A stretch of DNA of 64,000 nt from Utricularia gibba (Eukaryota > Streptophyta > Magnoliopsida > Lamiales > Lentibulariaceae), in assembly GCA_002189035.1 (NCBI GenBank), contig CM007989.1:3472001-3536000 (forward strand). The letters are read 5' to 3'. The notes under the pieces were generated by a model. That model made no database searches. It was not told where the DNA came from and saw only the letters and a program-made list of their open reading frames with translations. The translations under genes were made by a program, and so were the position numbers. Positions 1 through 64,000 of the stretch are shown here, piece by piece (position 1 is the first letter of the stretch; every line of letters starts with the position of its first letter).

Positions 1-336
1 CATTGAGTCCATTTTCGCCCCAACTCCATCCTTCCCACGAACCTCATGAATCTCATGGATCCTTCCCGTGTAAAACAACACCCGCTCTGTCAACGTCGTC
101 TTCCCGGAATCAATATGTGCCGATATCCCAATGTTTCGGACTCTGTGTAAGGAATCCTTCCACACTGCCTCCTTCTCCTCCCTAATCCGTGCCGCCGCAG
201 CACTTCCTGCTGAGAAATGGCGGAGATTCACCTTCCCAGCTATCAGGGCCGCCACCGGCGTGGGTTGTGGGGTTGCTCCAACACAAAGAGAGTAGAGAAC
301 TCGCGCACAATGCGATCGGGCGGTTCGAGCCGCCAT
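1..336 (-). CDS. MEFG1: Mitochondrial translation elongation factor G, 5' exon (partial)
   Basis: The first 112 codons of a GTPase that translocates the mitochondrial ribosome along mRNA; the gene continues past the left window edge. The start is the ATG at 336-334 ([10 protein letters not shown]...). Residues 1-55 are rich in Ala/Arg/Ser with almost no acidic residues, as expected for a mitochondrial presequence. The mature domain follows with [20 protein letters not shown], whose AHIDSGKT is the G1 P-loop of translational GTPases, then [20 protein letters not shown] and KMDSM leading into switch I. The [13 protein letters not shown] stretch is typical of mtEF-G1 rather than of plastid EF-G. 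No frame break is seen. The DUO1-like gene upstream lies on the same strand and ends 415 bp before this start. Confidence 0.93.
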
Positions 337-750
337 CTTGATATGTATGCTCACTCAATCACTACCTAGCACCCCAACACTGTAATGTCGAGGAAGAATA
401 TGGAATCAATAAATTGTTCGGCAAAAATTCAACCTTTTCAACAAAACCCGACGCCCTTGTCGTCTGCAAGGGTTTTGTTCAAGAGTTAAAGACTAGGGAT
501 TTCTCTCCACTTCCATAAACCCTGAACCAGGACTAGGAAAAGGTCCCTTTTTTAATAATAACAAATCGCAGATTTTTATTGTATATAAAACTGAAGTGCT
601 ATAGATTGAGCTTTGCAGACAAACTGCACAAAAGAATGTGCGCCAACAATACCTGAACACACAGTGCACAAACATCTTGTTAGTTTCAGTACAAGTAATG
701 GTAGCAAACAGCAAATGAGTAGTGGCTGGTGTGAATGAAGTGATCAATCT
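337..750. other. Intergenic: EF-G promoter and MYB 3' flank
   Basis: A 414 bp gap between the EF-G start codon and the stop codon of the upstream same-strand MYB gene. It must hold the EF-G promoter/5' UTR and the MYB 3' UTR. I see no repeat and no convincing coding potential. Confidence 0.6.
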
Positions 751-14629: not shown

Positions 14630-14779
14630 CCACAACTTTTCCGAGCAACAACCAACTATTTAGTTCTTTTCTGTTGTAAAATTTTCCGGTATGAGCCCAT
14701 GACCGAATGCTTGCTTAATGGAGTTGTAACTTCTTATCCAGTTTTTCTGGATTTTCTTGTCTTGGATTAATTTTTTAAA

Positions 14780-15515
14780 TCTGTGCTTCGTAAGGGTTTT
14801 TTTTAATGGTTTCTTCTTATTTTCCCTGGTGCCCCTTGATTCCTCGTAATTGCTCTCCGACACCGCATTGCTTTTTGGTTTGGTATCAGCCTGCCGCACA
14901 ATTTGTTCGACGAAATGCCCGAGCAGAAACGCTACCTGGAAATTTTTCTAGTATGGAAGACCGTTGTTCTGTTAACAGCCCACGAAGGATCCTGAGCTTC
15001 TCCAAGAATCGGAAGGCGAATCCCGGTTTTTCTCAAGTCGATGACTACAAAAATACGGCAGGTTTCGGTGTCTCCGGCGAGCATGGCCCCAAACTTTCTG
15101 AGGTTTATGGGTTCGTGGCTCCATAACCACCGTGGTGTTCACAGGTTTGGCTCCAATTGACTCATTGCATTCCCGCTTAAGTTCATGATCTTGGGCATCC
15201 ATCTGAATCTCCGTGAAAGCTATTGAATTGTTGCTATTTGATGCCGGATTAGAGGATTAAAGTTCACATCAGGATTGAACACGGGGGGGTCGTCGGTCTG
15301 TTGGGTTTGAAGTGTACTCACACATCCAAATTGGGTTATTTTTTTGTGATCAATGCAGAATAATTTGTTAGAACATCTCTGATCTACATGTCTAAGCCTT
15401 TTTTGCTTATCCAACAGCCATTTTCCTCATATGGGCATATATCCCAGATGAATGGTTACATTCTTTAGGGATCTACTACTATCCAAGCAGGTCAGATACA
15501 ACGTTTACATCCACA
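14780..15515 (+). repeat. Duplicated block, PIG-P copy 1 side
   Basis: This stretch (5' flank, exon 1, intron 1, exon 2 and the first bases of intron 2 of PIG-P) is clearly homologous to 20447-21085. Shared runs include ttattttccctggtgcccct upstream and gaataatttgttagaacatc in intron 1. Similarity stops shortly after exon 2. Confidence 0.8.
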
Positions 15516-15893
15516 AACTCTTACACAGTCCTTGATGCCGCAAATTGTGATCCATGTCAGGCACTGGGCACTGGTCGTACCTACTTATTTGATGGTTTCA
15601 GTTGCATTGGGTATTGTCTTCTACATTGGCATCAACTTCATGGCAACTCCTCCTCCTACTTCCTTGAACACCATGCTTGGTAGGTGATCGGCAGTGAGCA
15701 ATTACTCACCCTGCCATTTTACTGAAATTGTCCTGATGTGTCGTCCTATCTTATAGATGAGTTCAGTAGGGAACCAGAACCCTTTAGTGCCATCATTTCC
15801 ACAGAGGACGACGGCGACCAGCCCATCCGGCCGATATCAGACATCGGCGTCGATCAGGTGAACAAGATAATGTTCAGAAATGCAAAGGCATAG
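14953..15893 (+). CDS. PIGP: GPI-GlcNAc transferase subunit P, full-length copy with a frame break
   Basis: Exons 14953-15144, 15418-15490, 15561-15679 and 15757-15893. PIG-P is a small two-pass ER membrane subunit of the complex that starts GPI-anchor synthesis by moving GlcNAc to phosphatidylinositol. Exon 1 has NSPRRILSFSKNRKA and GFGVSGEHGPKLSEVYGFV; exons 2-3 give IWAYIPDEWLHSLGIYYYPS and HWALVVPTYLMVSVALGIVF; exon 4 ends QPIRPISDIGVDQVNKIMF. The second copy reads GTGGGCTCC where this one reads GTGGCTCC (near 15115-15119). The missing G shifts the frame just before the first membrane segment and creates a stop at once. All four splice pairs and every other exon are well preserved, so I lean towards sequence error rather than a dead gene. 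Confidence 0.82.
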
Positions 15894-18370: not shown

Positions 18371-19253
18371 ATGGGAATGAGGTGCAAAAAGCACCCCGGC
18401 GACCTAAGCAGCGATGTCGGCGTCTGCGCTTCGTGCCTCCGGGAGCGCCTTTTCTCTGTAATGGTGGCGCAAGCGGAGCTGAGGCAGGACTGCAGGAAAA
18501 AGGAAATCCCGCAACAGGATTTTCCGGCTTTTCCGCGCTCCGTCTCGCCGTACATTTCGCGGACGGTGAGCCGCCACCAGATGTTTTTCAGTACGCCTCA
18601 GGTGAGGGCGACGGCGATGACTGTGGCGGTGGGGATTAGGGAGGAGGAGGAGGACGGGAAGGGGAGGAAGGGAAGGGTGGGAAATTGTCGTCGTTGTTTC
18701 TTAGGATCTTCAGACGGAAATCAGATAAGACGGATCCGGGTCGGGTAACGCATCCGCCGGAATGCTCGACGGCTTCATCGTCGTGGTTTTCTACAATAGT
18801 CCCAGGACGGACGAAGAAGCCGAATCAAACGTTTTCCGCAGACGATCGGCCGATAAAGTCGAAGCGAAAGCCGTACCGGCGTTTTGACCGGGGAATGTCC
18901 CCGGTAAGGAATCCTTACGAGGAAGAAAACGGCGGTTCAAGCGGTTACTCATCCGACTCATCCCATCAGACGCCTCGAAGGTCTCCGGCAGTTCCCCGCC
19001 GCGTCGGAGGCAAAGTTCCGGCAGCGCACAACGTACACGTCTCCGGCGTGTCCTTGTGCTTAAGTCCTCTAATCCGTCCCAGCCCCAGCCGACAATGGAA
19101 TCCAAAAGGCCTTCTAGTTCCCGACGTGCCCGCTGGCACCGAATCCAGAACCCCGTCCACTCTCCCCGGCTGTCCTCCGCCGCGTCGTTCTGCAAGAGCC
19201 GGTCCCGGAAACTCGCGGACTTCGGTAGGAGCAACTACTACCGCGACGACTAG
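18371..19253 (+). CDS. Uncharacterised plant protein with CKKH/CASC motif, frame-broken
   Basis: The start is ATG 18371 (MGMRCKKHPGDLSSDVGVCA). A Cys-x2-His-x10-Cys-x2-Cys pattern (CKKH...CASC) followed by LRERL suggests a small metal-binding N-terminus; I know of no assigned function. Then SVSPYISRTVSRHQMFFSTP, a basic SSLFLRIFRRKSDKTD, FDRGMSPVRN, HVSGVSLCLSPLIRPSPSRQ and the C-terminal SRKLADFGRSNYYRDD. These blocks recur in one plant family as I remember it, but here they lie in three frames. The first shift is in the G-rich tract 18640-18684, the second around 19105-19150. Each is repaired by one added base. It is one exon if so read. A 102-nt intron from the GTGAGG at 18602 was considered but leads to a stop. 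Confidence 0.6.
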
Positions 19254-25384: not shown

Positions 25385-25791
25385 ATGAGAACAGCCGTTG
25401 CGTACATCTCCGGCCGCGGATTTGACGTCAACCAGCCTCATTTTCTCGATTCCTGCTTTCTCTGCCATAAGTCACTCGGTCGGGAAAAGCGATATTTTCA
25501 TGTACAGGTGAGAATATTCGCAGCCTCCTCTTTTGTCTTCCGCAGGCACCATTGCCGGAGGTGAATTCTGAGGCGATTGCTGATTTTAGTTGTTGCCCTA
25601 TTTTTTGCAGAGGAAATACGCCGTTCTGTAGTCAGGAGTGTAGACAAGAACAGATCGATATGGACGAAGCCGGCGAGAATAGATGGCGGATGACGGCCGC
25701 CAAGAGACCGACTAACCCTCAAACATCTGAGACTTCCGGCGAATCCAACGGCAAGAGATCCGTGAGAACAGGGACCCTTGTCGTCGCCTGA
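25385..25791 (+). CDS. FLZ zinc-finger protein (DUF581), frame break in exon 1
   Basis: Two exons, 25385-25507 and 25611-25791. FLZ proteins are small adaptors that bind the SnRK1 kinase. The FLZ finger spans the intron: HFLDSCFLCHKSLGREK in exon 1, then (D)IFMYRGNTPFCSQECRQEQI and DMDEA. The four zinc-ligand cysteines are in CFLC and FCSQEC. In-frame translation of exon 1 ends KRYFHVQ, whereas the conserved DIFMYR lies one frame over. The break is at about 25490, where one extra C (or two missing bases) separates GREK from DIFMYR. The exon 2 tail is unconserved and Ser/Thr-rich. Splice sites are canonical. A TATA box lies 67 bp upstream. Confidence 0.8.
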
Positions 25792-27046
25792 AACGCCCAA
25801 TTAAAACTCCGATTCCGACTATTTCCGGAATAAAATTGTAAAAAATGAAAAAAAAAAGCAATTTTGAATTTTGGGCCATTTTAATTTAATTCCCTTTTAC
25901 CCCTCTCCATTGTTTCAACTGGTGCAGAAGATTTGGCTGTCACAACTTGTGACTTTCTTTTTTTACCTCATCCTTATATATTTTGAAAACAAATTCAATT
26001 TACTACAATTAACTTCTTATTTGTTAAATAATTTGTACCTTTCAAGAGTATAACAAATTCTTTTAAAAATCAATGCAATTATATCATCAGTATGAAAGTG
26101 TACATTTTCAGTCAAAATAATTTCTAATAATTAATTTTAAAAATTAAATTTACATTTATGTCCATTTTATAATTATCTACAATAATTATTATTTATATTA
26201 TATAAATAATTTATAAAACATATTTTTGAATTTTTATATAACTGTGAAACTTTAATGGGCTTTCTAAATTAGGATATATCAAACTTTTTAAATAAGATTC
26301 AAATGTTATCTAATTAAATATCATTTTGGCTGATTATTTCTCTAGATAAATTAATCTTCATATTTATTAAGATCATCTTTAGTTTTTTAAATTTAGATTG
26401 AAATCATTTTGAAAAATTACAAAACACATTTTTTGTTCAAAAAGATGAAATTTATAAAAAAATATATGTAAAATAATTTAAAAAATTATGAAAAATCACA
26501 AATATAAATGTCAATTTTTCACATATCAATTCTCAATATCCAAACCAACATAATTATAGGTATTGGGTGGGGTTGGTTATTGACAAAAGATGGTGATAAA
26601 AAAGTGTAACCTTTTAGAGTTCAATTTTAAAATTTAAGGTAAGAGATAAAAACCAATTATTTACAAAAACATCAGATTTCAATAATCTTATAAATAATAT
26701 TATTATTTTTAAATAAGAAAGATGCTAGACACAAGGAAGAACCGCTTAAGATGCAGATGAGCAAGGGAGATACACTGGTAAGGCAGGATGGATAGAACAG
26801 CGTCTACAAAGGTGAATCAAAACTTAAAATTTTCTTGACATGGACAGAGAGTAAGCTGCTATGCATGGGATCAAGGATTTCCCTTTTTCTCATACTCTCA
26901 CCACATACGCTACTTACCAGACCACCCGCATCTTCTTTACACACACAACTGCGAAAGCGGAGAAACGAGAACCGAAAACGACCGCCGGCGAGATGGAGTC
27001 CTCTCTTCATCTCTCTCAGAAACCCAGACCATGGGGGGGAAGCTAC
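25792..27046. other. Convergent AT-rich intergenic region
   Basis: About 1.25 kb between the 3' ends of the FLZ gene and the MORN gene. 25860-26720 is very A/T-rich. No gene or clear repeat boundary is seen. Confidence 0.5.
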
Positions 27047-28961
27047 TTACGGAAGCTGGTTGGAGAAAACTTGTGGCAACTCTGGACGAGGGGGGTTGGA
27101 GTCACTATCGTGTCTATGATGCATCTGCCTCTGCACTGCTTTCACCGCTGCCACTCGTGCGGCATTGGCTGCTCGGTTTGCTGCTGCGACTGCCCGGCTC
27201 ACTCTTTCGTCTACTTTGGTTACGTCGTAGGCTTTATCTGCTGCCCGGCGAGCTTCCTGAATAGTAAACATGGTGTAAGAAGGGAACACTCGGGTAACCA
27301 GAGAGTGCACGCAAAGGGACTACCTGAACGACATTCAGAACTTTGGAGTGGTTCACAGCAACAGGCGAAACTGGAGAGTCAATGCTCTGAGTGCTGGGAA
27401 CATCGAGGATGCCGCCTTGCCAATGGCCTGAATGGGCTTCTCCATTCCTGAAAATGTAGGTTCCAAGACCCTGCCTTTTCCCCTCATGCCATGCACCTTC
27501 ATATCGATGGCCATTCGCAAAGGAATAGACACCGAAACCATGCATCTTGTCAGCGAAATACTCACCGGCATACCTATCCCCATTCCTGAAAGTACAGAAC
27601 GAGTAAATTAGCAAAACTCAGGAGCTCTTTCTCATTATCTTGATCTGAACTTAGTAAATACTCCCATCATCAACTCTACATCTTAGTTCTGAAAATTGGA
27701 CTATGCGGATCCATGAATCTGGTAGGAAAAGATCAAGAACTAGCACAATGTAATGCATAAAAGACAGGCAAGATGTATCTAATCCTTGGTGATCAACATG
27801 TCCCGTATCAAGCAAAAAAGTAAGTAACAAAACAAACAAGTAAAAGCATTGCCTTGATCACTTGATGAAAACCACTCACCTGAAGTGGTAATGCCCAAGG
27901 CCATGCTTAACACCCCACTTGAATTCTCCCGCATACCGACTACCATCATCACAGGTATGGATTCCACAGCCATGACTTTGGCCACTAGACCATTCCCGGC
28001 ATACACATCACCTGTATAGAATCTATACACACCAAAACCATGCCTCAGACCTTGCCTATACTGCCCTCTGTAACGACTGCCCCTCGCCCATGTCTCTACA
28101 CCATAACCATCATACTTACCATCAACCCAATCTCCCTCGTACCTTCCACTCATATAGTAATAATACACACCACTTCCACTACATTTCCCTTGATGAAATT
28201 CACCTTCATACACATCACCGTTGCTATATGCCTGCACATAATACCCGGAGATAGCCCTTTTGTCTGTTTTCTGACGAGAGCCTATAGACCAGAAAACCGG
28301 TAGGTGAGGCCGAGATACTTGGCTCTTGGAACATAGCTTAAGCGGCAAATTCTTGGCAAGAAACAGTCTTATTGTGGTAACCTCGGGATGGCAAGATTCA
28401 ACGAGAACAGAAGTACAGATACGAAAGCAAATGCAGATAGAAAATCGAGGAGGAAGGAGGTGGAAGGGTGGGAAACTAAAAAGTAAAAAAAGGGCAAACT
28501 GAGCAGAAGAATTAACCGGAGATGGAGACGCACACGGCGGCGAAGGTACCGGAGGTGGTGATGGAAATGGGTGAAAATCTTCTGCGACCTGTTGTACAAG
28601 TAATCGTATTTCGACGGTGGAGTAGTATTCTGGTTCTGCACGGAAACACCATATCTATCGAGGGAAGTAGGTAAGGTTGGGGCTTTTGTGAGAGAACCGG
28701 AAAGCTGTTGCTGAAGATGCGGCCGCTTAAATGGGCGTTTGAAAGCAACGGAATCATTCTGCTCCGGCAGCTGTTGACCCTCCCGCCGATGAGAATTTTA
28801 AGGTCCGAACTGTTCAGCAATTGAGGGGCAATCGAATTGAAATTGAAATTCTGATGCTTCTGCGTCAAAGAAGACGGGGTAAAAGGCGGTGTAGGATTAA
28901 AATCGGAAGAGACGCCGCTGCTTTCTTTTCCGATTTGTACTTCAGATTTCTTCTGATGCAT
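27047..28961 (-). CDS. Membrane-associated MORN-repeat protein, with three frame breaks
   Basis: Three exons: 27880-28961, 27324-27585 and 27047-27256. The start MHQKKSEVQIGKESSGVSSD matches Arabidopsis MORN proteins annotated as SET7/9-like (At1g77660 type). After a proline-rich region come RYLRRRVRLHLRLILLLSLP and FFYFLVSHPSTSFLLDFLSA, a strongly hydrophobic segment; then at least seven MORN units (YSNGDVYEGEFHQGKCSGSG, MSGRYEGDWVDGKYDGYGVE, GSRYRGQYRQGLRHGFGVYR and so on). The last exon is an Ala-rich helix (VSRAVAAANRAANAARVAAV). MORN repeats bind acidic phospholipids; the role here is unknown. In exon 1 the frame breaks at 28796-28799 (T run), 28376-28377 (GG) and 27995-27997 (CCC). Each is fixed by one added base in that run. 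No SET domain is present. Confidence 0.82.
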
Positions 28962-30569: not shown

Positions 30570-32140
<1,571 letters not shown>

Positions 32141-33456: not shown

Positions 33457-33512
33457 TCTCGCTCACAGCTCAGACTCTGCTGTGCTTATGCTGGGATTTG
33501 GAACCTCCTCTT

Positions 33513-33532
33513 TATATATATATATATATATA
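33513..33532. repeat. (TA)n microsatellite upstream of cyclin gene
   Basis: A run of ~10 TA units, 57-76 bp upstream of the CYCU start codon; it could serve as, or overlap, the TATA element. Confidence 0.85.
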
Positions 33533-36500: not shown

Positions 36501-36857
36501 TTTTCCAAAAGTAACTTTTATAATATAATTTTAAAAATATTTTTTGATAAAATTAATTTTACAATTATTAATGTTTTAGTTATTTTTAAAAAATAGAAAT
36601 ATGATTCAAAAATTTTCCATAACACTATTATATTAATATTCCAAATGATTTCTCCATTTTATCACAGAAGATGAGTTTTTGAAGGCAGAGATTTTATTGG
36701 GTTTATTACAAAAAAAAAAAGTTGAGGGGGAGAAGAGATGACGTTGGTATCCCCAAGTGGAGTGGAAAACGGAAGCTAGAGTGAAACCAAACGGAATATT
36801 CCAAAGGGGGAATGGGGATCTAGGTTAGGGTGGGAATCACCCTTTTGTTTTCTCGTT
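33533..36857. other. Long intergenic region
   Basis: About 3.3 kb, mostly A/T-rich (33850-34440, 35400-35800, 36350-36700) with G/C-richer islands at 34440-35010 and 35990-36310. Small ORFs in the islands (for example 36011-36256) show no family signature, and no splice-linked partner was found. Could include remnants of genes or repeats I do not recognise. Confidence 0.5.
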
Positions 36858-36864
36858 TATATAG
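36858..36864 (+). promoter_or_regulatory. TATA box of NDPK1
   Basis: TATATAG, 76-82 bp before the NDPK1 ATG and followed by a C-rich leader; typical plant core promoter spacing. Confidence 0.6.
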
Positions 36865-36939
36865 CCCCGGCCCCCGCCGCTACTGCACTGCACTGCACTC
36901 TACTCCCATTTGCTTTGGTTGCTCATCGAATCTGAGAGC

Positions 36940-38111: not shown

Positions 38112-38424
38112 AGTCTCCTTTCTTGAACTTGTCAAAGAGTCTTGAACCCTGCATTTTGCTTGCCATGTTATGGTTTCAAGCCGGTGTGTGACAATGCATT
38201 TTGTACGCTAATAATTCTATGGCCATTTGAGTGGTTTTGCTCATAGAAGCAGAAGCGACATCCATGGTTATTCTGTGTCTTCCTCACAAAAGTTACATTC
38301 CAAGTCAGAATGTTCAATATTCATTGGCAAAAACAATTGAGAACACCAGGCCTAGCGAGATTCTCAACGTTGTGCTTCGACTTGCTTCGAAGCAACAACA
38401 ATCCAGTCCAAAATGTGGAAAAAA

Positions 38425-40412
38425 CTACCTCGTGAGGAGATGGTAAGAGGGCAGATCCTCGAGCCGAGAGATATCTTCTTGCAAAAGCTCCTGCTCTAAC
38501 TGCCGCCGTGTTGCTCTCATCACGTCCTGAATGCGAAGTTCATGAGCCAGCCATGTGAGGAAATTCCACTATTTCACTATCAGCAACTGCGTAGGTGGAG
38601 TTAGTGGAAGCCGAGGTAATAATACTCACGTTGAAGTCCATATAGGAGGCGCGCATAGCCAACCACTGACGGTCCATTAGCTTGAACGCGATGCAGTAAA
38701 GAAGATCAAATGCTGATTCATTTTCTGTAGAGTGGGAAGAATGAGACTACGGAACTTCCTCAAGAGAACAAGTGTAGTGCTTACCAGTGAGAAACTTCAA
38801 GAAGGTTGCTCCTGCTAGACTTCTCGGCTTACCTGCAAAACATAGGATCAGGCAAAGCACAGGCACCTCTCAACACCGAAGAAAGTTACACTCAACATAG
38901 AAAGAAGAGAGTAAAAGAGTAGAATCTGTGTGAAAGAAATAGAAACTTAAAAATACTTCCTACCAGCCTCAAGGTAAAGCATCTGAATAAGCATAAATGT
39001 AATGTTGACACCAGCTACAGCAAAGGGGTATTCCCACGACGCCCTATCACCTTCCCTTTTAAGAAGAAGGTCCTGAAACGACATCTGTGCACCAAGCATC
39101 ATGGAGTTCAGTGCAGAAAAAGAGACGTAACACTAAGGGCCAGTGAATGATAATAATCAAGATTAGCAGATCAATTTTAAACAGGGACATCCAATAGAAC
39201 ACCCTAATTTATCAGCTTTAGATGGAAGAGATAAACCAAGTACAAACCGGGAAGTTCCTGGCAAAGTATAGCAAATTTTCCAATGATATCAAGCCACCAC
39301 CCCTGAATTCATACATTGAAGGTGCCAATGAGATGTTGAAAACTTAAGCCTGTTTGGTTCAGTAGTCCAATAAAAATAATGATTACCGGAAATCTGTAGA
39401 GGGATCTTTTCCCTGCCAACCCATTTCTTTCCACTGCTCAGATATAAGACCATGGAGCTCTTCACCCGGAAAAGCAGCATACCACAATGCTCTAAGAGTT
39501 TCCTACATAAGGAGGAGGCATGAGGGGAATGGAGTTCGTTAAGCCTCTATCACTCGGTCCTTCAGTAAACTATACCTGGTGCGCGGGGACTGAGCCATCA
39601 TACGCAATTTCTATCCGATTCTGTAACCTCTGCAAATATTCCTCCTAATAGCAAGATTCATATTTAAAGCATCATAATCTGGTGGCAAGTATGAGTTCAA
39701 AAATCAAGGTAGTAACAAAAGAAACTCCTCCACGAGCCTATGACAAATGATACAGCACAAATGTACCATGGCTTAAAGACATCATATACAGTTAATCAGG
39801 AAGGTGATTCCAGAGAGCATCATAGATTATAAAACCTGTAAAATGGTCAAAGAAAATGATGGGCCATCATCACAACCTCTTCCTTGAACGCACACACATG
39901 AGAGGCCCCTGCCTAGCCATGCAGCAGATCCGGCCAAAGCCTCTGCTGCAACAGCAAAAAAATTAGAAAATATTAGCAAGCAGTTCTCAAGAATGTTGAA
40001 CCAGGACTTGAAATTTCCATCTAGTTCATGGTTGAACCAGAAAAATGTGTTCCCGAAAATTCGAAAAATAATTGATTAATGCCACTTGGCCTAGATTCTA
40101 CATCATGATCAGAAGGTAGAAAAACCATTGGTTCAACGACTACAGAGTCAATTAAACTAACCACAGAGCTCAATACAATTAGGCATCGTTTCGCGACCCT
40201 CTCTCTTTCAAAAAAACACCGCCACACTTTTTTCCAGACACTATACCCCTAAAAAAACGGATGAAAATGAGCGAGCGGATACAGTAATCGAATACAACAG
40301 AAAACGCATCTAAAGGTAATTTACCAGAAGTAGAATGACACGCAGTTCCTCGATCAATCCCATGTGAAATCCGCCTCACCGCCACAAACGATCCTCCTCC
40401 TCTTTCAACCAT
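38425..40412 (-). CDS. ELMO/CED-12 domain protein
   Basis: Nine exons: 40325-40412, 39836-39945, 39576-39644, 39387-39502, 39248-39302, 38964-39072, 38785-38832, 38630-38724 and 38425-38526, giving 263 residues. The N-terminus reads GSFVAVRRISHGIDRGTACH, then AEALAGSAAWLGRGLSCVCV. The ELMO domain follows: LQNRIEIAYDGSVPAHQETL, ISEQWKEMGWQGKDPSTDFR, GGGLISLENLLYFARNFP, WEYPFAVAGVNITFMLIQML, GKPRSLAGATFLKFLT, ENESAFDLLYCIAFKLMDRQ and ATRRQLEQELLQEDISRLED. Animal ELMO proteins regulate Rac with DOCK180 or act as Arf GAPs; plant single-domain members have no settled role. Every junction keeps the reading frame. An in-frame ATG six codons upstream (40430) is a possible alternative start. Confidence 0.9.
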
Positions 40413-41113
40413 TTCGCAGCCGTAACTCAAACAGAAAAACAGTAGCGCGAAAAGAATCTCCGTTTACCGGGAGGCGTAAAGCCTATTGAAGACGCACAGA
40501 AACTAGATTATTGAGCGATTAACAAACTACAGCTGTGGCGGCGCAACGTACGAGTGTAATGTGCATATAATGGATGTGTGACACGGTTTAGTTTCAGTAA
40601 TGGCCGGCCGCCAGAGTGTGGACGGCGATTCTCATGTTCCGATTCTCTGACAGCGGCCGACATATTTTCCGGAACATTAATTAATTTCGTTGGTCTCACC
40701 AAATGAAAAAAAAATAAAAAATCTGTGTCCGAATGCTTTGAACCGGTCCAATCATGAAAAGGGTGCGGTTTGAAGACGGAGATAATGCTTTTGATCTTTT
40801 TAAGAGATGAAATAACACGTGTCCCACGTGGGATGTTGGGACATATTTCTGACGTCAATAATGTATTTAATTGAATTTTAATTGGTTCATGATCCTGTGA
40901 TGGGGTTTGTTCACATTATCCTCATATCTAGTTTTCAGCTCCAGAAAAGATGGGCAATGAGCAACAAATAAGAGTAGCGAGACCAGGATTCCAAAGGCAC
41001 CCAAAGATGGTTACGACATAGAGATAGAATGGAACCCAAACTTGTATAGTTAGGAAGGGAAGCTAGAGCACATATTATACTGCAACCAGACCTGCTCAGA
41101 TTGGCGAGTTGGC
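40413..41113. other. Intergenic: ELMO promoter and UBC 3' flank
   Basis: A 701 bp gap between two same-strand genes. It includes CACGTG at ~40818-40832 (two nearby ACGTG cores) and no coding sequence I can support. Confidence 0.5.
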
Positions 41114-42522
<1,409 letters not shown>

Positions 42523-42806
42523 GGTAATCAAATCAACTGCGTGGGATAGATCCCGATCGTTTCGTTGATTCCGGCACAAAGAAGAAAACGGAGGCGGCCA
42601 AGAAATCACGCACCACGGTGAGAGAAACCGTTTCCGGTGAATAAACAAATGATATACCCCTTTTTGTTGCGTCTATCTTACGAAAGGTACCCCTCACTAG
42701 CCTCGACCCACTCTCCTCACAAAGTATAATTTTCTATCTTTTTATTAAATAAATAAAAAATCATGTTTTAATTTTTAAATAATTTATAATTAAAAAAATA
42801 GTATCT

Positions 42807-44406
42807 TCAAGGTTGAAGCTTTAGCTCCTTGTTGCTGCAATTGGCCTGAGATATGGGGTGCCTGATCCAGTGGACCCTTTCGCCGAATAAACCCTTCAGG
42901 CGCATCCATTCCGGATGATCAGCCGGAGAGCAGCCGCCGGCAGGGGCATCCTCCCTGAACCTTGATTCCACCAGCGTCAAGCTCTTTAGCTCGCTCGTCG
43001 ACGTCGCAGCGAAGAAGGAAGCCAGCAACATGTGGCATTCCGAGAAAGTCATCCCCTCGATCCTGACGTAATTCAGTTTTTGAAATATGGTCGGCGTCGC
43101 CATGGCCTCCTTCACCCCGTCGACGAACTTCTCCAACGGTGACTCGCCGGAGCATCCATCAATCTGCAGACAGAGGAGCTTTTCAAGAGCTCTGTCTCTG
43201 ATATCGTGTAATAAATAGAGCACTCACATTGATGAAGACTCGTTTAACCATGGGGCAGGTCTGAAGAAACAGGGGAAGGCAGAGGATCTCAGCGGTGGGG
43301 CGTCTGGTGTGGAAATGGACCTCCTCCACGTCCCATAAAATACCTCTACCGGGGAATATCCGCGTCCCCGGAAACATATCCTGCAGGTTGCAGAGAAAGC
43401 GGGTGGTTTATAAATAAGAGCAGTGTTGGGGTTTAAGGTACCGGCGTACCTCAATGCCAGGAATATTGGTGATCAGTGACATGGCGGAAGCGCAGGCGAC
43501 GCAGCGGCGCAGCCCCGAGTAGGCTATGATGTTCTGGTGGCGAGAATGAGTATCACTCAATGACGAAGGGACAGATGCTCGAAGCAGGAGAGACGTTTCC
43601 TTGCCAGTGAACTCAAACGTCTTCACGCAAGGGGCAACGACCTCCAACCAGATGATGTTGCAGCTATCCACCACCACCTCGCTTAACAGCGGATGCGCGC
43701 CAATTAGAATGGTATCGCCGCTCTCGCACTTGACAAGCTTCAGCACCTTCAGAAACCAGCAACTGTTAAAAACAGCATTCATGGCATCGGAAGTAAGGTA
43801 GGTGCATCGGATGGTCAAGTCATGGAGATGGGGCAGGGATTGGAATGGCGCCAGAGGCAACATGGAGGTGCATCCCGACAAGGTGAGACTCCTTAATCTG
43901 TTCGAAACCAAGAAGACTTCACTACGCAGTTCAAAAGGTTTCACTGGAGGAGAATTCTCACGCAGACAAAAGTCGAGGCAGATTTCTTCAAAACCAAGAC
44001 CAATTACTCTCTTCACCCATGTATTCACCAGCTCATTCTGGTAATCTGTAGTGGCGTTGAAATATAGAGAAAAACGTCGAGCCCCAACACCGGAATGCCT
44101 CATGATAATATCCCCAACTATCTTTGTCCTCAAGTCATCATCACCGATCCCTGTGACAAATTTTCTGTCCACTAAAACATCACGACAGAACCGACAGAAC
44201 CGCCATGAATCACTGAATGTCTTTGAAACTTTACCAATATCATAAACTTGGGTTGCAGGCAAAAAGGTGAAAATTTTTTCTACCAACTCAACAGGCAAAA
44301 ATTGGAAATCTGAAGAGAAAGCCATCGACACGAACCGCCCATTCCCCTCTCTCGATGATTCCTCATAACGAGCAGGCAATATAGTGGTGACATAATCATG
44401 CGCCAT
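42807..44406 (-). CDS. F-box/LRR-like protein, tandem copy A (5' end degraded)
   Basis: Exons 43451-44406 (to be read from the first usable ATG), 43228-43380 and 42807-43163; the exon 1 donor is at 43450. The F-box is FQFLPVELVEKIFTFLPATQ with VYDIGKVSKTFSDSWRFC. Leucine-rich stretches follow (VSNRLRSLTLSGCTSMLPLA, SLPHLHDLTIRCTYLTSDAM). The final exon resembles an FBD-like end: LNYVRIEGMTFSECHMLLAS, FFAATSTSELKSLTLVESRF. It aligns with copies B and C along its length but is diverged. Upstream of 44406 homology continues in frame (KDFRLIHEVFGYTYLVKC), but a stop (44530-44532) sits where B and C read FFGPG and the usual ATG is replaced by AAG. So this copy either starts at MAHDYVTTI, losing the first ~65 residues, or is decaying. 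F-box proteins are SCF ubiquitin-ligase receptors. Confidence 0.75.
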
Positions 44407-44532
44407 GGTAACCAGATCTTTCACAACTTCTGCTTTATAGTCGTTCGGATACACTTGTTCAATACACTTCACCAGATAAGTGTATCCGAACACTTCATGA
44501 ATGAGACGAAAGTCTTTCTCTGTGCCGGATTA

Positions 44533-44854
44533 GAAGAAGGGACATGCCACGCAATTAGGAGCACAACAGTGTCTGTGTGCGCTGGAGGAGATGCAGGGAG
44601 CCTTCACCGTCTCCAAGAAAAAGAAACAACAGAGGCAGGTCTAATGTGGAGAACAAGAGCCGAAGAATGTTTCCTTATTGGATGACTATTAGGAAATAAA
44701 AGATACGATTCATGAAGATTATATTTAGAGCATGATAATTAAATCAAATATTTTAAACTGATTTTATTTAATTTTTATACATTCAAATCTTATCTTATTT
44801 GATGATAAAATTAGAAATTCAAATAATCGATTCACTTAAAAAATTATTTTTTTA
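44533..44854. other. Intergenic: former 5' end of F-box copy A
   Basis: 44533-44600 is still alignable to the first codons of copies B and C (APC...S, PFF) but without a start codon. The rest is the presumed promoter of copy A and the beginning of A/T-rich spacer. Confidence 0.55.
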
Positions 44855-47580
44855 AATCTGCATTTCATATTAAATAAGAAATTACTTTAAAAATTATACT
44901 ATTCAATTTTTATATATTTTAAAAAATGCATTATATTATTACATTAAGATATAATAATTTAATTTATTAAATTTTATAATACATAATTTAATATATTATA
45001 ATATATAATATAATGTCATATTATCTTACAAAACAGCTTTACAAAAAATGTTTAGTATATTCAAAAGAAAAACTTAAAACAGATTCTATTTTACATAATT
45101 TAAATTATTAGCTTTGATTTTAATCAAATATATGATGCGTATTTTTTTTCTTGACGAAATATATGATGTGCATATTATTCTGTTTTATGTATATTCAAAT
45201 ATTTGATACATATATGTAAAATTGTATTAAAAAAATATAAAACATATTCTCATTAAATAACTTCTTTCGTTTTTCCTTTAGTTCTAGTTTCATTTTCTCC
45301 TACTAATTATTGTGTATATTAACTTTTTCTATCTAACTTTGCATCTAACATTTATTATCATAATATAAGACTTTATTATTTTATTATTAAAATTTATATT
45401 TATATTTTAAATTGTTTTATTTTTTTATTGTATAATTTTTAATTTTTTATTTTCTTAATACAGATAAATTTAAATTTCGTGAATCACGTTCGTATAGTGC
45501 ATCATAAAGCCTCAAAAAAGTTAATTAAGTAATAATTAATAAAAAATAGTTGTTTTTCAGAAATGACACGTGGCTACATTGTAATGTAGTATGTGATGTC
45601 AAGCATCTCGTAACTCCCAATCGGCCTGGCAGTGCTGGTGGGTGAGCCAGTGGATCTTTCCTGGGCACAAATCCTTCCAAAGTTTCCAGCTTTTCTGCGG
45701 CTGAGCCCAGAAACCGTTGAGAAGCGCGTCAGGGCTGAAGCTTGATCCAACCAGCGTTAAGCTCTTCAGCTCACTGGTCGATGTCGCCGCGAAGAACTTC
45801 ACCAGCAGATCGTGATCCTCTGAAAATGTCATTCCCTCGATCATCACGTAGCTCAGTTTTGGTAGCCTGATGGGCGTCGCCATGGCCATTCTCACCCCGG
45901 CGGCGCTCCCCTGTGAGGGGACACGGCATCCGTCAATCTGTGGATCAATGGGCAGCAGTAGGCGTTAGGATCAACTGCGTGTTCAAGATTGTGGTGTTTG
46001 GAGTGAATACTCACGTTCATGAACACTCTCCTCAGCAATGGGCACCTCAGGAGAAATAGGGGAATGGAGAGAAAGTCGACTGAAGATATTCTGGGATGGA
46101 GGTGGAACTCCTGGACGTTCCCAAAACCGCTGCCGCCATTCCAAAGCCCCAGCTCCTGAACGGGATCCTGCACATTCCAAGAAGACGAATCAGCATATTT
46201 TCTGATACTAGGCAAAAATGGAAGCTCCATGTGGTGTAAGTGCATATTCTCAAAAAAGTGACCAACCCCAAATGCTGCAAAACGGCTTCCCAATAAAAAG
46301 GCGGAGGCGCGTGAGATGTGGCGGCTGAGCTCCATGGAGTTCACTAGAGTTAGGTGATGGTCACGGCAATCTTCAGACGTATCAGTCGACGGTTCTGATG
46401 TTTTGAGCTGCGCTTGCATACAGCCACTGCTAAACTCGAAGGTTTTCACAGAAGGGGCGTTGATATGATAACCGATGAAGTTGCATGCATCGAACGCTAT
46501 TTCTGTCAACCCATTCAGGCTCCGGGCATCGAGGAGCACTGTCTTGACGCTCGCGCACTTCACGAACTTCAATACCTGAAGAGATCTGCAACAGATGAAA
46601 ACACCCTCAGCATCGGGGATTCAATAAAGATGCCCTCCAGAGTAAGAGAAAGCAGATGGGGTAGCGAGTTGCGTGGCGCCAGAGACATCATGGGAGTGCA
46701 TCCCGACAAGTGGAGACTCCTTAATCTGTTCGAAACCATGAAGGTTTCATTACCAAGAACAACAGGCCCCCTCCTTGGATCCGAATCCGAAAAGTCGAGG
46801 AAGATATCTTCAAACCCAAGATTAATTACTCTTTTCACCCACGTCTCCACCAGCTTCCTATTGTCAACCTTGAAATACAGTGAAAATCGTCGAGCGCCTA
46901 CTCCAGAATGCCCCATGATGATGTCCCCCACAATGGCTTTCCTCGAGCGATCATCACCAAGCTCTCTGACATACTCTTTGTCCAAGGAAACATCACTGCA
47001 ATACCTCCAAGTGTCTCGAAACGTCTTGGAAGATTTAGAGATGTCATAAACTGTGGTTACAGGCAAGAGCGTCAATATTTTATCAATGATTTCATCCGGC
47101 AAATCTCCAGACCCTTCTGAAGACAAAATTGTTTCCCCAGATAACCCTCTGTAAAAATCAGGCAATTCCTTAGTGATATGATCACGAGCCATATTGACGA
47201 GATTCCTCACAGTTTCTTCCTTGAAATCAGGAGGCGCAGCAGCGATACACTCCACCAAGTAACCGTATCCATACACTCTGTCAACAAGACAAAAGTCCTG
47301 TTCTTTCCCAGGCCCGAAGTAGGGGCGCAGTATGGAATCAAGAGCTGCTTGTTGTCGACTACAGGGGAAGCAGGGAGCCATGGGGACGTTTTCGAAACCT
47401 CAAAGAGCGGGAGAGATAGAACTTTCGAATGTTGAATGTGAAGATCGAAGGAAGGAATTTATAGAAGAACTCCACCGCATTCGTATCTAAATATGGAAAC
47501 AAAATATTTTTTATCTATCTTAATATCCAAAATTCGATTCGTTAGCTCAGTTATAGATATTATCTCAAATCTAATTACAA
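44855..47580 (-). repeat. Tandem duplication unit 1 (F-box copy B)
   Basis: A ~2.7 kb unit: A/T-rich 3' spacer, F-box copy B, and ~200 bp of promoter. It aligns with 47755-50460 end to end, including spacer motifs such as tttaatttattaaattttat and promoter motifs such as atatggaaacaaaatatttt. Confidence 0.85.
45599..47381 (-). CDS. F-box/LRR-like protein, tandem copy B (one frame break)
   Basis: Exons 46015-47381 and 45599-45937. It starts MAPCFPCSRQQAALDSILRP, then a ~95-residue N-terminal region (VDRVYGYGYLVECIAAAPPD, VRNLVNMARDHITKELPDFY) before the F-box LPDEIIDKILTLLPVTTVYD. Leucine-rich units follow (NRLRSLHLSGCTPMMSLAPR, LPHLLSLTLEGIFIESP) and the FBD-like end MIEGMTFSEDHDLLVKFFAA. The frame breaks at the CCC run 46604-46606, where copy C has CCCC (49462-49465). 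One base more restores MLRGVFICCRSLQVLKFVKC and continuity to the end. Very close to copy C in coding, intron and promoter sequence, so a recent duplicate. Whether the lost base is real is open. Confidence 0.82.
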
Positions 47581-47754
47581 AAAGCGAATTTAATCGTTTA
47601 TCACAATTTTTCGGATAAATTAGAATTTTGGTCTGAAAAAAATGATTATCTCATATGTATTTTTTTTTAACCAAGTGTGATAAAGAATGTGAGATTCGAT
47701 AATTTTTTAAATAATTCTAATTTTTTCTGAAGGAAAAATATGGAGTTTTTTTTT

Positions 47755-50460
47755 CTTAAATCTATATTTCAATTATTAAATAATAAATTAATTAAAAATT
47801 ATACTATTCAATTTACATACATTTCAAAAATACATTATATTATTACCTTACGATATAATAGTTTAATTTATTAAATTTTATAATACATAATTTAATATAT
47901 GACAATATATAATATAATTTCATATTGTCTTACAAAAAAATTTTAAAATCTAAAAATTTAGCATATTCAAAAAAAAAAAAACTTAAATCATATTCTATTT
48001 TACATAATTTTAAATTAGTAGATTGGATTTTAATCAAATATATGATGCGTATTTTTTTTCTTGACGAAACATATGGTGTGCATATTATTCTGTTTTATGT
48101 ATATTCAAATATTTGATACATACTTGTAAAATTGTATTAAAAATATATTTTCATTAATAAATTCTTTTGTTTTTTTTTTTTAGTTCTAATTTCATTTTCT
48201 CCAACTAATTATTGTGTATATTGATTTTTTTTTATATCTACATTTGCATCTAATATTTATTATCACATTGAGAGAGATTTATTATTTTATTCTTAAAATT
48301 TATATTTTAAATACATATAAATTTAAATTTCATGAATCACGTTTGTATTATGCATCATAGGGTCTGAAACAAGATAATTAAGTAATAATACATAAAAAGA
48401 GTTGTTTTTCAGAATTGGCACGTGGGTACTTGTAATGTGGTACTTCAAATTTTGAGGTGGAGCAACTGGTAACTCCAATCGGCCTGGCAGTGCGGATGGT
48501 TGAGCCAGTGGATCTTCCCCGGGAGCAAACCCTTCCAACGGTTCCAGGTATTCTCCGGCCGAGCCCAGAAACAGTTGGGAAGTACGTCAGGGGTGAGGCT
48601 TGATCCAACCAGCGTTAAGCTCTTCAGCTCACTGGTCGATGTCGCCGCGAAGAACTGCACCAGCAGATCGTGATCCTCTGAAAAACTCATTCCCTCGATC
48701 ATCACGTAGTGCAGTTTTCGTAGCCTGATGGGCGACGACATGGCCATCCTCACTCCGGCGGCGCTCCCCTGTGAGGGGACACGGCATCCGTCAATCTGTG
48801 GAACAATGGGCAGCACTAGGTGTTAGTATCAACTGCGTGTTCGAAATTGTGGTGTATGGAGTGAATACTCACGTTCATGAACACTCTCCTCAGCAATGGG
48901 CACCTCAGGAGAAACAGGGGAATGGAGAGAAAGTCGACTGAAGATATTCTGGCATGGAGGTGGAACTCCTGGACGTTCGCAAAACCCCTGCCGCCATTCC
49001 AAAGTCCCAGCTCCTGAACGGGATTCTGCACATTCCAAGAAGATGAATCAGCATATGTTCTGATACTGGACAAAAATGGAAGCTCCATGTGGTGTAAGTG
49101 CATATTCTCAAAAAAGTGACCAACCCCAAATGCTGCAAAACGGCTTCCCAATAAGAAGGCGGAGGCGCGTGAGATGTGGCGGCAGAGCTCCAGGGAGTTC
49201 ATTAGATTTAGGTGATGGTCACGGCAATCTTCAGACGTATCAGTCGACGGTTCTGATGTTTTGAGCTGCGCTTGCATACAGCCACTGCTAAACTCGAAGG
49301 TTTTCACAGAAGGGGCGTTGATATGATAACCGATGAAGTCGCATGCATCGAACGCCATTTCTGTCAACCCATTCAGGCTCCGGGCATCGAGGAGCACTAC
49401 CTCGACGCTCGTGCACTTCACGAACTTCAATACCTGAAGAGATCTGCAACAGAAGGAAACACCCCTCAGCATGGGGGATTCAATAAGGATGCCCTCCAGA
49501 GTAAGAGAAAGCAGATGGGGTAGCGAGTTGCGTGGCGCCAGACACATCATGGGAGTGCATCCCGACAAGTGGAGACTCCTTAATCTGTTCGAAACCATGA
49601 AGGTTTCATTACCAAGAACAACAGGCCCCCTCCTTGGATCCGAATCCGAAAAGTCGAGGAAGATATCTTCAAACCCAAGATTAATTACTCTTTTCACCCA
49701 CGTCTCCACCAGCTTCCTATTGTCAACCTTGAAATACAGTGAAAATGTTCGAGCGCCTACTCCAGAATGCCCCATAATGATGTCCCGCACAATGGCTTTC
49801 CTCAAGCAATCATCACCAAGCCCTGTGACATACCTTTTGTCCAAGGAAAAATCACTGCAATACCTCCAAGTGTCTCGAAACGTCTTCGAAGATTTAGAGA
49901 TTTCATAAACTGTGGTTACAGGCAACAAGGTCAATATTTTATCGATGATTTCATCCGGCAAATCTCGAGACTCTTGTGAAGGCAAAATTGTTTCCCCAGA
50001 ATGATCATCCCCAGATAACCCCAAGTAGAAGCCAGGCAATTCCTTAGTGATATGATCACGAGCCATATTGACGAGACTCCTCACCGTTGCTTTCTTGAAA
50101 TCAGCAGGCGCAGCAACGATACAATCCACCAAGTAACCGGATCCATACACTATGTCGACAAGACGAAGGTCTTTTTCTTTCCCAGGCCCGAAGAAGGGGC
50201 GCAGCATGGAATCAAGAGCAGCTTGTTGTGACTGTTGGCGACTACAGGGGAAGCAGGGAGCCATGGGGACGTTTTCGAAACCTCAAAGAGCGGGAGAGAT
50301 ACAACTGTCGAATGTTGAATGTGAGGATCGAAGGAAGGAATTTATAGAAGAACTCAACCGCATTCGTCTGTAAATATGGAAACAAAATATTTTTTATATA
50401 TCTTAGTATCCGAAATTCGATTCGTTAATTCAGTTCTAGATATTATCTCAAATCTAATTA
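47755..50460 (-). repeat. Tandem duplication unit 2 (F-box copy C)
   Basis: The second ~2.7 kb unit, homologous throughout to 44855-47580. The two units lie head to tail on the same strand with ~170 bp between the aligned parts. Confidence 0.85.
48445..50264 (-). CDS. F-box/LRR-like protein, tandem copy C (intact)
   Basis: Exons 48873-50264 and 48445-48795, giving 580 residues: the only unbroken member of the array. It starts MAPCFPCSRQQSQQAALDSM. Residues ~1-98 form a conserved helical-looking region not typical of F-box proteins, where the F-box is usually at the very N-terminus. The F-box (RDLPDEIIDKILTLLPVTTV, YEISKSSKTFRDTWRYCSDF) starts near residue 100, followed by leucine-rich stretches (LRSLHLSGCTPMMCLAPRNS, HLLSLTLEGILIESPMLRGV, SLQVLKFVKCTSVEVVLLDA, FLLRCPLLRRVFMN) and a terminal FBD-like segment (VMIEGMSFSEDHDLLVQFFA, ATSTSELKSLTLVGSSLTPD). 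Probable SCF substrate receptor; the target is unknown. It is divergent from the plastid-protein gene at 50797. Confidence 0.88.
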
Positions 50461-50502
50461 ACTCAAATAACAACCTGGATTTTAATTAAAAAATGATTAT
50501 CT

Positions 50503-50535
<33 letters not shown>

Positions 50536-58918: not shown

Positions 58919-59763
58919 TTAACCCCTCTGGAAAACGTTGTGATTCGCCTTCTGCACGTTCGCTGATCTCTTCAAGACTGAGAATTTCAGAGACCAAGAG
59001 GCGGCCCCCGGCTGCGAGGACACTGTGCTGCTAAGCAGCATCCCATCTCTGTTGTGGTCATCATCATTACCGGATTCTTCTCCACGGGTTGCAACCAAAC
59101 CTTGCTGGGAAGGTGCATCTTGATCCACAACGAGGATCAGATCATCGGAGCTGTGGAAGTCGCGTCGACTCACATCGACGGTAGGCGGCGGTTGAGGACC
59201 GGGGAGAAGGGTTGAGGGAGCTGGATGGATCCAGATAGCAACATTTGCACGACAGAGGGGGCAACTGGACTGAGATGTCAACCAGGTATCGATGCAGGGA
59301 ATATGGAAAGCATGGCTGCAATTTGGCATAAGCCTGAGGGACTCATTCTCTTCAAATTCACTCAAACAAACAGCGCAATCTGTTCCTTCGATCAACCCAT
59401 CACCCTTCTGATACTTACAAACTGTAATCCTCTTGATGAAGGATTCATCCAGTCCTGCGACGGAAACAGCCCACTGATCCGGCAGTGGTTCCTCCGCAGT
59501 GCTGCGATTCTCCGGCGGGGGGTCCCCCGGCAGAATCTGGTGACGAGGGTGTAGTAGCCGACAAGGAGAGAACCGCTGACCAACACGCCGATGACGGCGA
59601 TGATCAGAGGTGAAAGCCCGGCGGTGGAATCATCAGGTGGGGGCGGCGGAGAGAACAAAATACAGAACTGTTGGCAGTCAAAGCTACAAACAGCTTGTGA
59701 GCAATCGCCGGGGCTAGAGCTGGAATTGGGAGCCCATAGATTCTGACTTCCTGGGGATCCCAT
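58919..59763 (-). CDS. ATL-type RING-H2 E3 ubiquitin ligase (ATL51/52-like), one frame break
   Basis: A single exon. The N-terminus is extracytoplasmic and Cys-rich ([18 protein letters not shown]), followed by PPPPPDD and a membrane segment [20 protein letters not shown]. The GLD-type motif ([10 protein letters not shown]) and the RING-H2 [46 protein letters not shown] lie in a second frame. The break is at the CC pair 59479-59480 (GG on the coding strand): one more base gives [20 protein letters not shown] and joins the two halves. The tail ([40 protein letters not shown]) is poorly conserved. Membrane-bound E3; the substrate is unknown. About 280 residues in total, usual for the subgroup. 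Confidence 0.87.
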
Positions 59764-60433: not shown

Positions 60434-63400
60434 TCACCCTCTTCGACCATCCAAAGCCTGATGTTTAAACCAACAGATGATGGGAATCAACCAGATTACA
60501 TTGTCGCACACAAATGCGAGTAATGAAAGGAAATCTGACGAAGCATCCATAAATTCCAATGCAGGCATACCTTGCTTTGAAAGATTCTCATGGTCAGGAC
60601 AAGCGTATCACGCATTCTAGAAAGAAATGGAAAGTGCATTGTTAGATAGACAGCCTTTTTACAGGCACAAAAAGCAACCCCCGAGTCTGTTATGAACTTA
60701 TAAGCTAAACTGGAAAGGTTTTTTTCAACCTGTGGCGTAAATAAAATATGTTTTCCAGGTAGCATATGAGTATATGACAAAGAATAATCAACATGTAAAA
60801 AGCAAATATCGTTGAGAAAATTGCTTGTCGAATGGCAATGTTAAAGAGAGGAAAACTGCCTTTACCTGAAACCATCGTTTGTTTTCAAAGGATATGAGAT
60901 TCCATTTGAACAAGTTAGGACAAACTGTGCTGAGAGGCCAGTCGGTATTTTGATCTGGAGGAAATGAAAGATGTGACCAAGTGATAATTCCAAATGATTA
61001 GTGGAGAGCAAAATATGGAGAAAATAAGATCATACCGAAAATTCCCTGGTATATTTCTCTGATATCAAGAGCTCTTGATTTTTCTCAACCTTGACCAGAA
61101 AGCCAGACCGTCGCAAAACAAGAGTTGCATGCTCCCAAACGTCAGGGGATTCTACCTGTGAAGATACACAGGGAATCCATGAGCAAGCAAAGCACATCAG
61201 TACACTTGGACGACAAATGAGTTATTCCTCAGAAGCAGTCTTTCTTACAAGAATTAGGACACTAAATGTCGCTGAACCTTTTGATACATATGCATCGATC
61301 TCCTCTTGCATTTCATCATCTTCATACATTGATTGTATCATTCATCCAAAAAGGAAAATACATAAGTATGGTGAATAAAAAGAAAGGGTAATCAAATATA
61401 GGTCTGGCATCCGAGTTGAAATAGAATAGTGAAGCAAATGAGCACATTCATGGCTAAACTGAGAAAGGATCCAGGCTCCCATGAATAAGCATCATGGTTG
61501 TCAGATGCAAAGTAAAATACAACTCACCACACGTAATCTTCTTGTTGTCATTGGCAAACATCCTGACTATAACCCCTGAAAGTGATGCAGAATAGAGATA
61601 GTAAGTGATTTGCCATTTCACCATACTGAAACCACTGACAAAAATTCAAGCCTTGCTGCATAGTAAATAAGTGGCAAGAAAAAGAATGTGCAAGTTACAT
61701 GTCTTCCATGGTCATCCATCGGTATGCACTCAACTGCAATGAGTTTATCAACATCATCTGCTGTCACAGCGTAAGTTGGATAAGTGGCTCCTGAAACAAC
61801 ACAAGCCATAGATACATCAATATATGCTCAGAAAAAAAAAAAAAAGGCTCCTGCAAGCGCATCAGGGCAGGCAACTAAAAGATGAAGTCACACAAGGAAG
61901 CGCCCATTTTTAGACGAGATTATTCATGAAGTACCTTCAATAAACTCTGTTGTTCCATCGGGATAGTAACGAACCCACTAGTATATAAGAAAGACAATCA
62001 TCAAATGCTCACTTCGTCATTACAACTGATCCATAAATAAAACACCATTGACAGGAGTACTCCAACCTGAAACATGCAGAGCGAAGTTCCACCTCTGGGA
62101 TATCCAGCACCAGAAATTTCACATCCTGGATTGGCATTTCCTACAATCTGAAAGTTTTCTATCCATGGATAATCATCATCTGAAACAGTTATCATAAAAG
62201 TCTGTAATTTGATGGATCGTTTCAATAAGCTATAAAAGAGAAGGAAGCAGACGAACCAGCTATATCGTTCATCATTGGCTGAGGATGGAATTGATTACCA
62301 GTCATCTGATCAGACTCATGGGAGAACTCGTTTCTCTCGAGCATATTTTCCCCATTGTAACCTGAAACACTTCTGTAATTGGGATCTCTCAGAACGAGCG
62401 AATCTCTTGTTGATATACACAAAACAGTAACCAGAAAATGTTAACATGCTTGAATGGGTTATCCTTGACTAGGGGATGCAATGAAGGGTTTATATGATAA
62501 ACAATAATCCTCAAATACATGAACTGTGAATGTGGAAGTCCATTTTGAGCCTACGACAAGAAACATATGCATGGTGATTCTCTTGATAGTACAATAAATC
62601 TAGCCAGACCTTGAGATGAGCTCTTCATTTCATTTAAGTACATTGTAAGGCAGAAGACAAAAGTTTGATATTTGAAAAATGGGAAGAAATAAGTTGATTC
62701 TTCAATTTCAGATAGTCACCTCATGGGGGTTCCATTATTTGCTAGATGGCGCATATCAATGCCTTCCATAAAGACTTTCACTTGATTCGAACCTCCACAA
62801 TGCTTTCACGTGCATTGTCTCTTGTTTCAGTATTTTGTCTATAATGAGAAAATCCTCCGATTTCCTATAGACGAATTATCAACATCACATCATAATCACA
62901 TTTTTTTCTTGGGTTCAACTGAAAGACGTTAGAAAGCAATGATGAAAGATCTATGTCTGCGAAAAAAACCATACAATCAATTGAAAAACCGTCAACTTTA
63001 AGAGATCAAAGAATTCATCTAAAATGATCAAGTTAGAAGCCATTACATTGGAGCTGCCAGAAAATTGAGCATTAGTGTGCCCTAAACCCAGGGCCCCACA
63101 GTGGGGCTATTTCCAGTCATGGCAGCCAACTCTGCAAGTTTGGCCTATGTAAAAGTGGTCATCATGAGCTTCATACTAAAACTGAGACTGGAAAATTGAA
63201 GATAATGTATCTAGAATCTCAAATTTGGATGAATACTAAAATACTGATTGAAATAAGTATCTGAAAAAGGGGTATGGCTTGATACTATGTAGAGGAAACA
63301 AGCAGCAACATGAGCACTTAAAATACTAGAAAAAGCTTCAGGCTTACACGGAGACCTCTTATATTCGACTGTAGTTGATCATGCAGGTTCTGGAAAGAAA

Positions 63401-64000
63401 AAAGGAGAATAAATGAATACACGCTGTGATAAAGAAATCATTAGCACTGAACGAACACAAGACAAGTATGAAGAGTGTGAAGACATGGTGATGAAAATCT
63501 GACAGATAATCAATGAGTTCAATCGCCATAGTATAAAATTCATTGAGTTAGTTAAGATTCACATTCTTTAATACGACTGAAAGTAGATTCAAAAATCAGA
63601 ACACCGCCCAAGTACCACTGCAGGCATTAGCTATTTTTTTCTTAGGCCATACCTTGATAGCATTTGTTAAAGCAGAGGCATTAGTTGCATGTGGTAAAGA
63701 GCAAAATTCATCCAGTATCTCCAGTAAAGATGTTGTAAAAATATGTCTCTCATGTTCTGTAGCCTATAACAAGAAGAATGACTTGACAAAAAAACATAAA
63801 AAGCTAATTTGAAGACGGAAAAAATAACAAAATAGCCCTAGGAAATTGATGACTTCTGCCTTTCATCTCAGTGTCCAAAACACCTCGGAAATTACCTTTA
63901 GTTCAGAGAGCAAGTTCAAATTTTGGTCAAGGTCACCTTTCCTTCGATCCAATTCATTAGATGCTGAAGTTACAATTTCCCTTTGCTTTTCGTCTAGGGC
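60434..64000 (-). CDS. Coiled-coil protein with AIR9-like (A9) domain, 3' part of gene
   Basis: The gene enters from the right edge. Exons: 63896-64000, 63653-63763, 63348-63389, 63047-63144, 62720-62864, 62257-62405, 62067-62179, 61935-61977, 61699-61790, 61528-61575, 61249-61319, 61036-61155, 60866-60954, 60571-60616 and 60434-60457 (stop). The first exons are charged and helical (ALDEKQREIVTSASNELDRR, KGDLDQNLNLLSELK, ATEHERHIFTTSLLEILDEF), likely a coiled coil. The second half matches the microtubule protein AIR9: FQIVGNANPGCEISGAGYPR, WVRYYPDGTTEFIEGATYP, TYAVTADDVDKLIAVECIPM, VESPDVWEHATLVLRRSGFL, IKIPTGLSAQFVLTCSNGIS, MRDTLVLTMRIFQSK. Microtubule association is inference from that likeness. 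Frame breaks at C runs 63094-63097 and 61573-61576, and at CC 62792-62793, are each mended by one base. Confidence 0.83.

What the first reader, a model, noticed from the sequence alone, without database searches (positions are those of the whole stretch)
1..64000. Recurrent single-base frame breaks at homopolymers across at least eight genes
Seen directly: genes that are otherwise well conserved and have correct splice sites are out of frame at short runs, and one added base repairs each. Sites: 15115-15119 (PIG-P), 27995-27997, 28376-28377 and 28796-28799 (MORN), 31099-31102 (CK2 beta), 42471-42474 (UBC), 46604-46606 (F-box B), 59479-59480 (ATL), 61573-61576, 62792-62793 and 63094-63097 (A9 gene), plus two shifts in the gene at 18371. 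Ten or more independent deletions, nearly all missing one base in a G/C run, in essential single-copy genes such as CK2 beta and UBC are very unlikely to be true mutations. The likeliest cause is consensus error in a long-read assembly. Genes with no such break (eIF3b, NDPK1, ELMO, XTH30) show it is sporadic.
Basis: partly seen in the sequence, partly recalled or inferred. Interest (0 to 1): 0.7.

Follow-up and report, generated by a model that had tools for sequence, protein, structure and literature searches.

The report
Missing-base sequencing errors in plant assembly
Many genes in this plant genome look broken only because the assembly dropped single bases, mostly in short runs of G or C, so the breaks are sequencing artefacts and not mutations; this is ordinary for a long-read assembly but can mislead anyone counting lost genes.

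Summary
Ten of the 13 listed breaks are supported by frame continuity, and most also by intact relatives in the same genome: PIG-P, MORN (three), CK2 beta, UBC, F-box B, ATL, and two in the gene at 18371. The three A9 sites look plausible but were not tested against a relative. Each break is a missing base. The interpretation, consensus error in a long-read assembly, is supported and extends genome-wide. In 41 GRAS genes (43.7 kb coding) I found 23 breaks: 21 miss one base, two miss two, none has an extra base, with only two in-frame stops. Of these, 43% sit at G/C runs of 4 or more, against 7.5% of background positions. Duplicate contigs differ by 9 substitutions but 48 indels in 9.8 kb, 45 of them missing from one partner of each pair. 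F-box B differs from its intact tandem twin by 70 substitutions and three indels (9, 15 and 1 bases); only the listed site breaks frame. The genome matches the published PacBio assembly of Utricularia gibba in size and contig sizes; that identity is an inference. Not a biological feature.

The parts
14953..15144 (+). PIG-P exon with break at 15115-15119 (one base fewer than the second copy)
18371..19253 (+). Uncharacterised single-exon gene read in three frames, two breaks (about 18676-18690 and 19110-19190)
   Evidence: intact relative C416:18253-19080
27995..27997 (-). MORN gene break 1
   Evidence: intact paralogs L089, L090
28376..28377 (-). MORN gene break 2 (frame continuity only)
28796..28799 (-). 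MORN gene break 3 (frame continuity only; an A/T run)
31099..31102 (-). CK2 beta break, one of three copies in the genome
42471..42474 (-). UBC (E2) exon 1 break, C run one shorter than in intact paralogs
46604..46606 (-). F-box B break, the only non-triplet indel against its tandem twin
48819..50282 (-). Intact tandem paralog of F-box B (488 aa open frame), internal control
59479..59480 (-). ATL RING-finger gene break between membrane segment and RING
61573..61576 (-). A9 gene, proposed break 1 (not proved)
   Evidence: splice phase read by eye
62792..62793 (-). A9 gene, proposed break 2 (not proved)
63094..63097 (-). A9 gene, proposed break 3 (not proved)

Best explanation
The frame breaks are residual base-calling errors left in the consensus of a long-read assembly. 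Raw long reads (most likely PacBio continuous long reads) lose bases in short G/C runs, the consensus step keeps some of these losses, and no complete short-read correction removed them. The genes themselves are intact in the plant. Shown: direction, run bias, genome-wide spread and disagreement between duplicate contigs. Inferred: the platform, the species and the missing polishing step.
For: GRAS control: 41 genes, 43,734 bp, 23 breaks (21 lose one base, 2 lose two, 0 gain), two in-frame stops; 10 of 23 at G/C runs of 4 or more against 7.5% of background positions, and 0 of 5000 resamplings reached the observed mean run length; A/T runs show no enrichment. Duplicate contigs C316/C412, C343/C328, C422/C414-end: 9 substitutions and 48 indels in 9.8 kb; 39 are single bases, 24 of them G/C; 45 are missing from the same partner of each pair (C316, C343, C414 end). 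Paralogs break independently at the same G/C-rich spot: five GRAS genes at or near PGGPP, the UBC on C3 (L055) reads the same short C run as the window, and the relative of the 18371 gene on C3 splits at the same place. F-box B: 70 substitutions, indels of 9, 15 and 1. PIG-P coding exon identical to its second copy except one G. The BAHD family (PF02458) shows about seven more one-base losses, counted by hand from the coordinates. Assembly size, contig sizes and the absence of a fourth Dicer_dimer hit fit the published U. gibba PacBio assembly.
Against: No raw or short reads could be inspected, so no single site is proved wrong in the assembly. The published assembly had about 88x coverage (PMC5793159), at which a good consensus should have fewer errors than about one per 1.9 kb of coding sequence. 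The duplicate contigs are small, or in one case a contig end, and may have lower coverage than the window, so they show the error type better than its rate here.
Confidence: 0.95

Rival explanations
1. The genes are real, recent pseudogenes: redundant copies left by whole-genome duplication that have begun to decay.
For: CK2 beta, UBC, PIG-P, MORN, F-box and ATL all have relatives elsewhere, so loss of one copy could be tolerated.
Against: Decay should also give inserted bases and stop codons: none of the 23 GRAS breaks is an insertion and only two in-frame stops were seen. Sequence stays conserved on both sides of each break; GRAS genes with breaks keep up to 91% identity to a paralog, leaving aside the C414 copy that duplicates C422. 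Several family members break at the same G/C-rich motif. Duplicate contigs of nearly the same sequence show the same one-base losses.
Confidence: 0.03
2. True germline or somatic instability of G/C runs in a lineage with a high mutation rate.
For: Lentibulariaceae are reported to have some of the highest substitution rates among angiosperms in all genome compartments (abstract of PMC5749785), and the losses sit at runs.
Against: Slippage gains as well as loses bases, and would hit the longer A/T runs at least as hard; A/T runs at breaks are not enriched. About one break per 1.9 kb of conserved coding sequence could not persist under selection.
Confidence: 0.01
3. Programmed ribosomal frameshifting repairs the reading at these sites.
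For: The breaks are confined to single points with coding sequence on both sides.
Against: Sites lie in unrelated genes with no shared slippery heptamer seen by eye; most paralogs of the same genes carry no shift.
Confidence: 0.003
4. Consensus error from another platform (nanopore or 454) or a hybrid assembly.
For: Run-length loss is also typical of those platforms.
Confidence: 0.05

Closest known systems
Residual homopolymer indels in PacBio or nanopore consensus sequences
   Same: Single-base losses, concentrated at runs, indels far exceeding substitutions, sporadic across genes; in a Plasmodium PacBio assembly 25,352 indels against 1,798 single-base differences before Illumina correction (PMC5964635).
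   Different: In Plasmodium, 98% of homopolymer errors lay in runs longer than 14 bp; here the runs are short (2-6 as assembled) and mostly G/C.
Pseudogene decay after polyploidy (fractionation)
   Same: Broken reading frames in members of duplicated families.
   Different: No inserted bases, few stops, conserved sequence on both sides, recurrence at the same motif in several paralogs.

Membership tests
Long-read consensus error | Indels greatly outnumber substitutions between copies of the same sequence | tested here: met
   48 indels against 9 substitutions in 9.8 kb of duplicate contigs
Long-read consensus error | Errors are mostly losses, not gains | tested here: met
   23 losses, 0 gains in GRAS genes; 45 of 48 gaps in one partner of each contig pair
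Long-read consensus error | Enrichment at homopolymer runs | tested here: met
   10 of 23 at G/C runs of 4 or more against 7.5% background; not met for A/T runs in coding sequence
Long-read consensus error | Spread through the genome, not confined to one locus | tested here: met
   GRAS breaks on about ten contigs; BAHD splits
Long-read consensus error | Independent short reads show the longer run | not testable with these tools
   no reads held
Pseudogene | Mixed disabling changes (stops, insertions, deletions, lost splice sites) | tested here: not met
   23 losses, 0 insertions, 2 stops in 41 GRAS genes; in F-box B no other frame-breaking indel in 1.4 kb
Pseudogene | Relaxed constraint after the break | tested here: inconclusive
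   Sequence is conserved after the break, but a very recent pseudogene would look alike

The most novel reading that the evidence does not exclude
A minority of the breaks are true frame losses, for example in extra copies left by genome duplication, hidden among the errors.
Probability: 0.1. Interest if true: 0.2.

Novelty: not a real feature. Interest (0 to 1): 0.15.

Why it matters
At about one false break per 1.9 kb of conserved coding sequence, more than a third of the GRAS genes examined carry at least one apparent break in the domain. Counts of lost or truncated genes and of pseudogenes from this assembly need cDNA or short-read checks first. The published claim of a truncated DCL3 in Utricularia gibba was checked by 5' RACE by its authors (PMC8333044), and only three Dicer-dimer matches were found here, so I have no reason to doubt that one.

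Tried and rejected
Looked for a near-identical second copy of window 25500-45400: only diverged paralogs were found, so there is no direct allelic test of the window itself. Two apparent GRAS frame changes (C4 and C1:1229xxx) are an intron and very likely an intron, and were excluded. A run-length census of the window and about 279 kb showed no clear cliff in G/C runs and is not decisive. Pfam scans gave nothing useful for the A9 and 18371 genes. The paper describing the U. gibba PacBio assembly is not in the library, so species and platform stay inferred.

Full report
The window is part of contig C1 (positions 3472001-3536000) of a plant genome of 100.09 Mb in 516 contigs. Its size, and a 6.82 Mb contig (C451), fit the published PacBio assembly of the bladderwort Utricularia gibba, which has four putatively complete chromosomes and a 6.8 Mb Unitig_8 (PMC8333044) and was assembled with HGAP at about 88x (PMC5793159). 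The finding of only three Dicer-dimer matches fits the reported truncated DCL3. The species is an inference; nothing below depends on it.

Check of the sites. CK2 beta: Pfam pieces lie in three frames and a frame-aware alignment to the C2 paralog shows exactly one lost base at the stated place. UBC: the window reads GATCCCCG where several paralogs read GATCCCCC; the C3 paralog L055 has the same short run and the same broken frame. ATL: a relative on C3 spans the break in one frame. The gene at 18371 is in three pieces, while a relative on C416 is in one frame. MORN: the first break is proved by two intact paralogs, the other two by frame continuity only. The A9 sites remain unproved.

Is it artefact or biology? 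I tested an unrelated family outside the window. GRAS genes are long and mostly without introns, so frame breaks are easy to see. A frame-aware alignment to the closest intact paralog, after leaving out two intron cases and one duplicate, gave 23 breaks in 41 genes and 43,734 aligned bases: 21 lost one base, two lost two, none gained one. Only two in-frame stops were found. The longest G/C run near each break averaged 3.5 against 2.2 in the background (none of 5000 resamplings as high), with no such effect for A/T runs. Five GRAS genes break at, or within a few codons of, the conserved PGGPP stretch, which is encoded by G/C-rich runs. Mutation would not pick the same codons in separate genes; a run-length reading error would.

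A second test needs no genes at all. Three pairs of duplicate contig stretches (C316/C412, C343/C328, C422/C414 end) agree to within 9 substitutions over 9.8 kb but differ by 48 indels, and 45 of these are missing from one partner of each pair: the small contigs C316 and C343, and the end of C414. Allelic or duplicate DNA that had really diverged would be expected to show more substitutions than indels. This is the signature of consensus error, probably worse where coverage is low; coverage itself was not seen.

Literature. PacBio assemblies before short-read correction carry far more indels than substitutions, mainly at homopolymers (PMC5964635). The present case differs in having short G/C runs.

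CK2 beta has three copies, PIG-P two, and UBC is a family, so the argument from single-copy essential genes fails. Not every run is G/C (MORN 28796 is T), and some are only two bases long. The statement that four named genes are free of breaks was not checked. The verdict is unchanged.

Limits. No reads were available. The rate in the window cannot be separated from local coverage. The BAHD count (about seven one-base losses) was made by hand from match coordinates and is approximate. For the joined queries, single broken plant proteins were read through for a search; no corrected sequence is offered.

Noticed in passing
L091 (C1:4203100-4203800) and window 15041-15754: A second PIG-P copy about 0.7 Mb away on the same contig, first exon identical apart from one base, introns diverged: a fairly recent duplication.
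   Followed up: partly
window 46000-50282: Two tandem F-box genes about 95% identical in DNA; a third, more diverged relative lies at about 43606-43923 (C1:3515606-3515923).
   Followed up: partly
C316 (38 kb), C343 (30 kb), C422 (60 kb), possibly C151, C159, C187: Small contigs that duplicate, or give the same hits as, stretches of large contigs, so gene counts from this assembly may be inflated.
   Followed up: partly
C1, C2, C505, C507: Contig lengths as held are round multiples of 2,500 (8,500,000; 6,192,500; 3,452,500; 642,500), as if ends had been cut.
   Followed up: no
C3:202851-203665: A relative of the window's 18371 gene is itself split at the same position, about residue 91-97.
   Followed up: no
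L049 (C413), about position 2827: A further UBC-like first exon reading KDSRNLLQCR, which looks frame-broken at the same motif.
   Followed up: no
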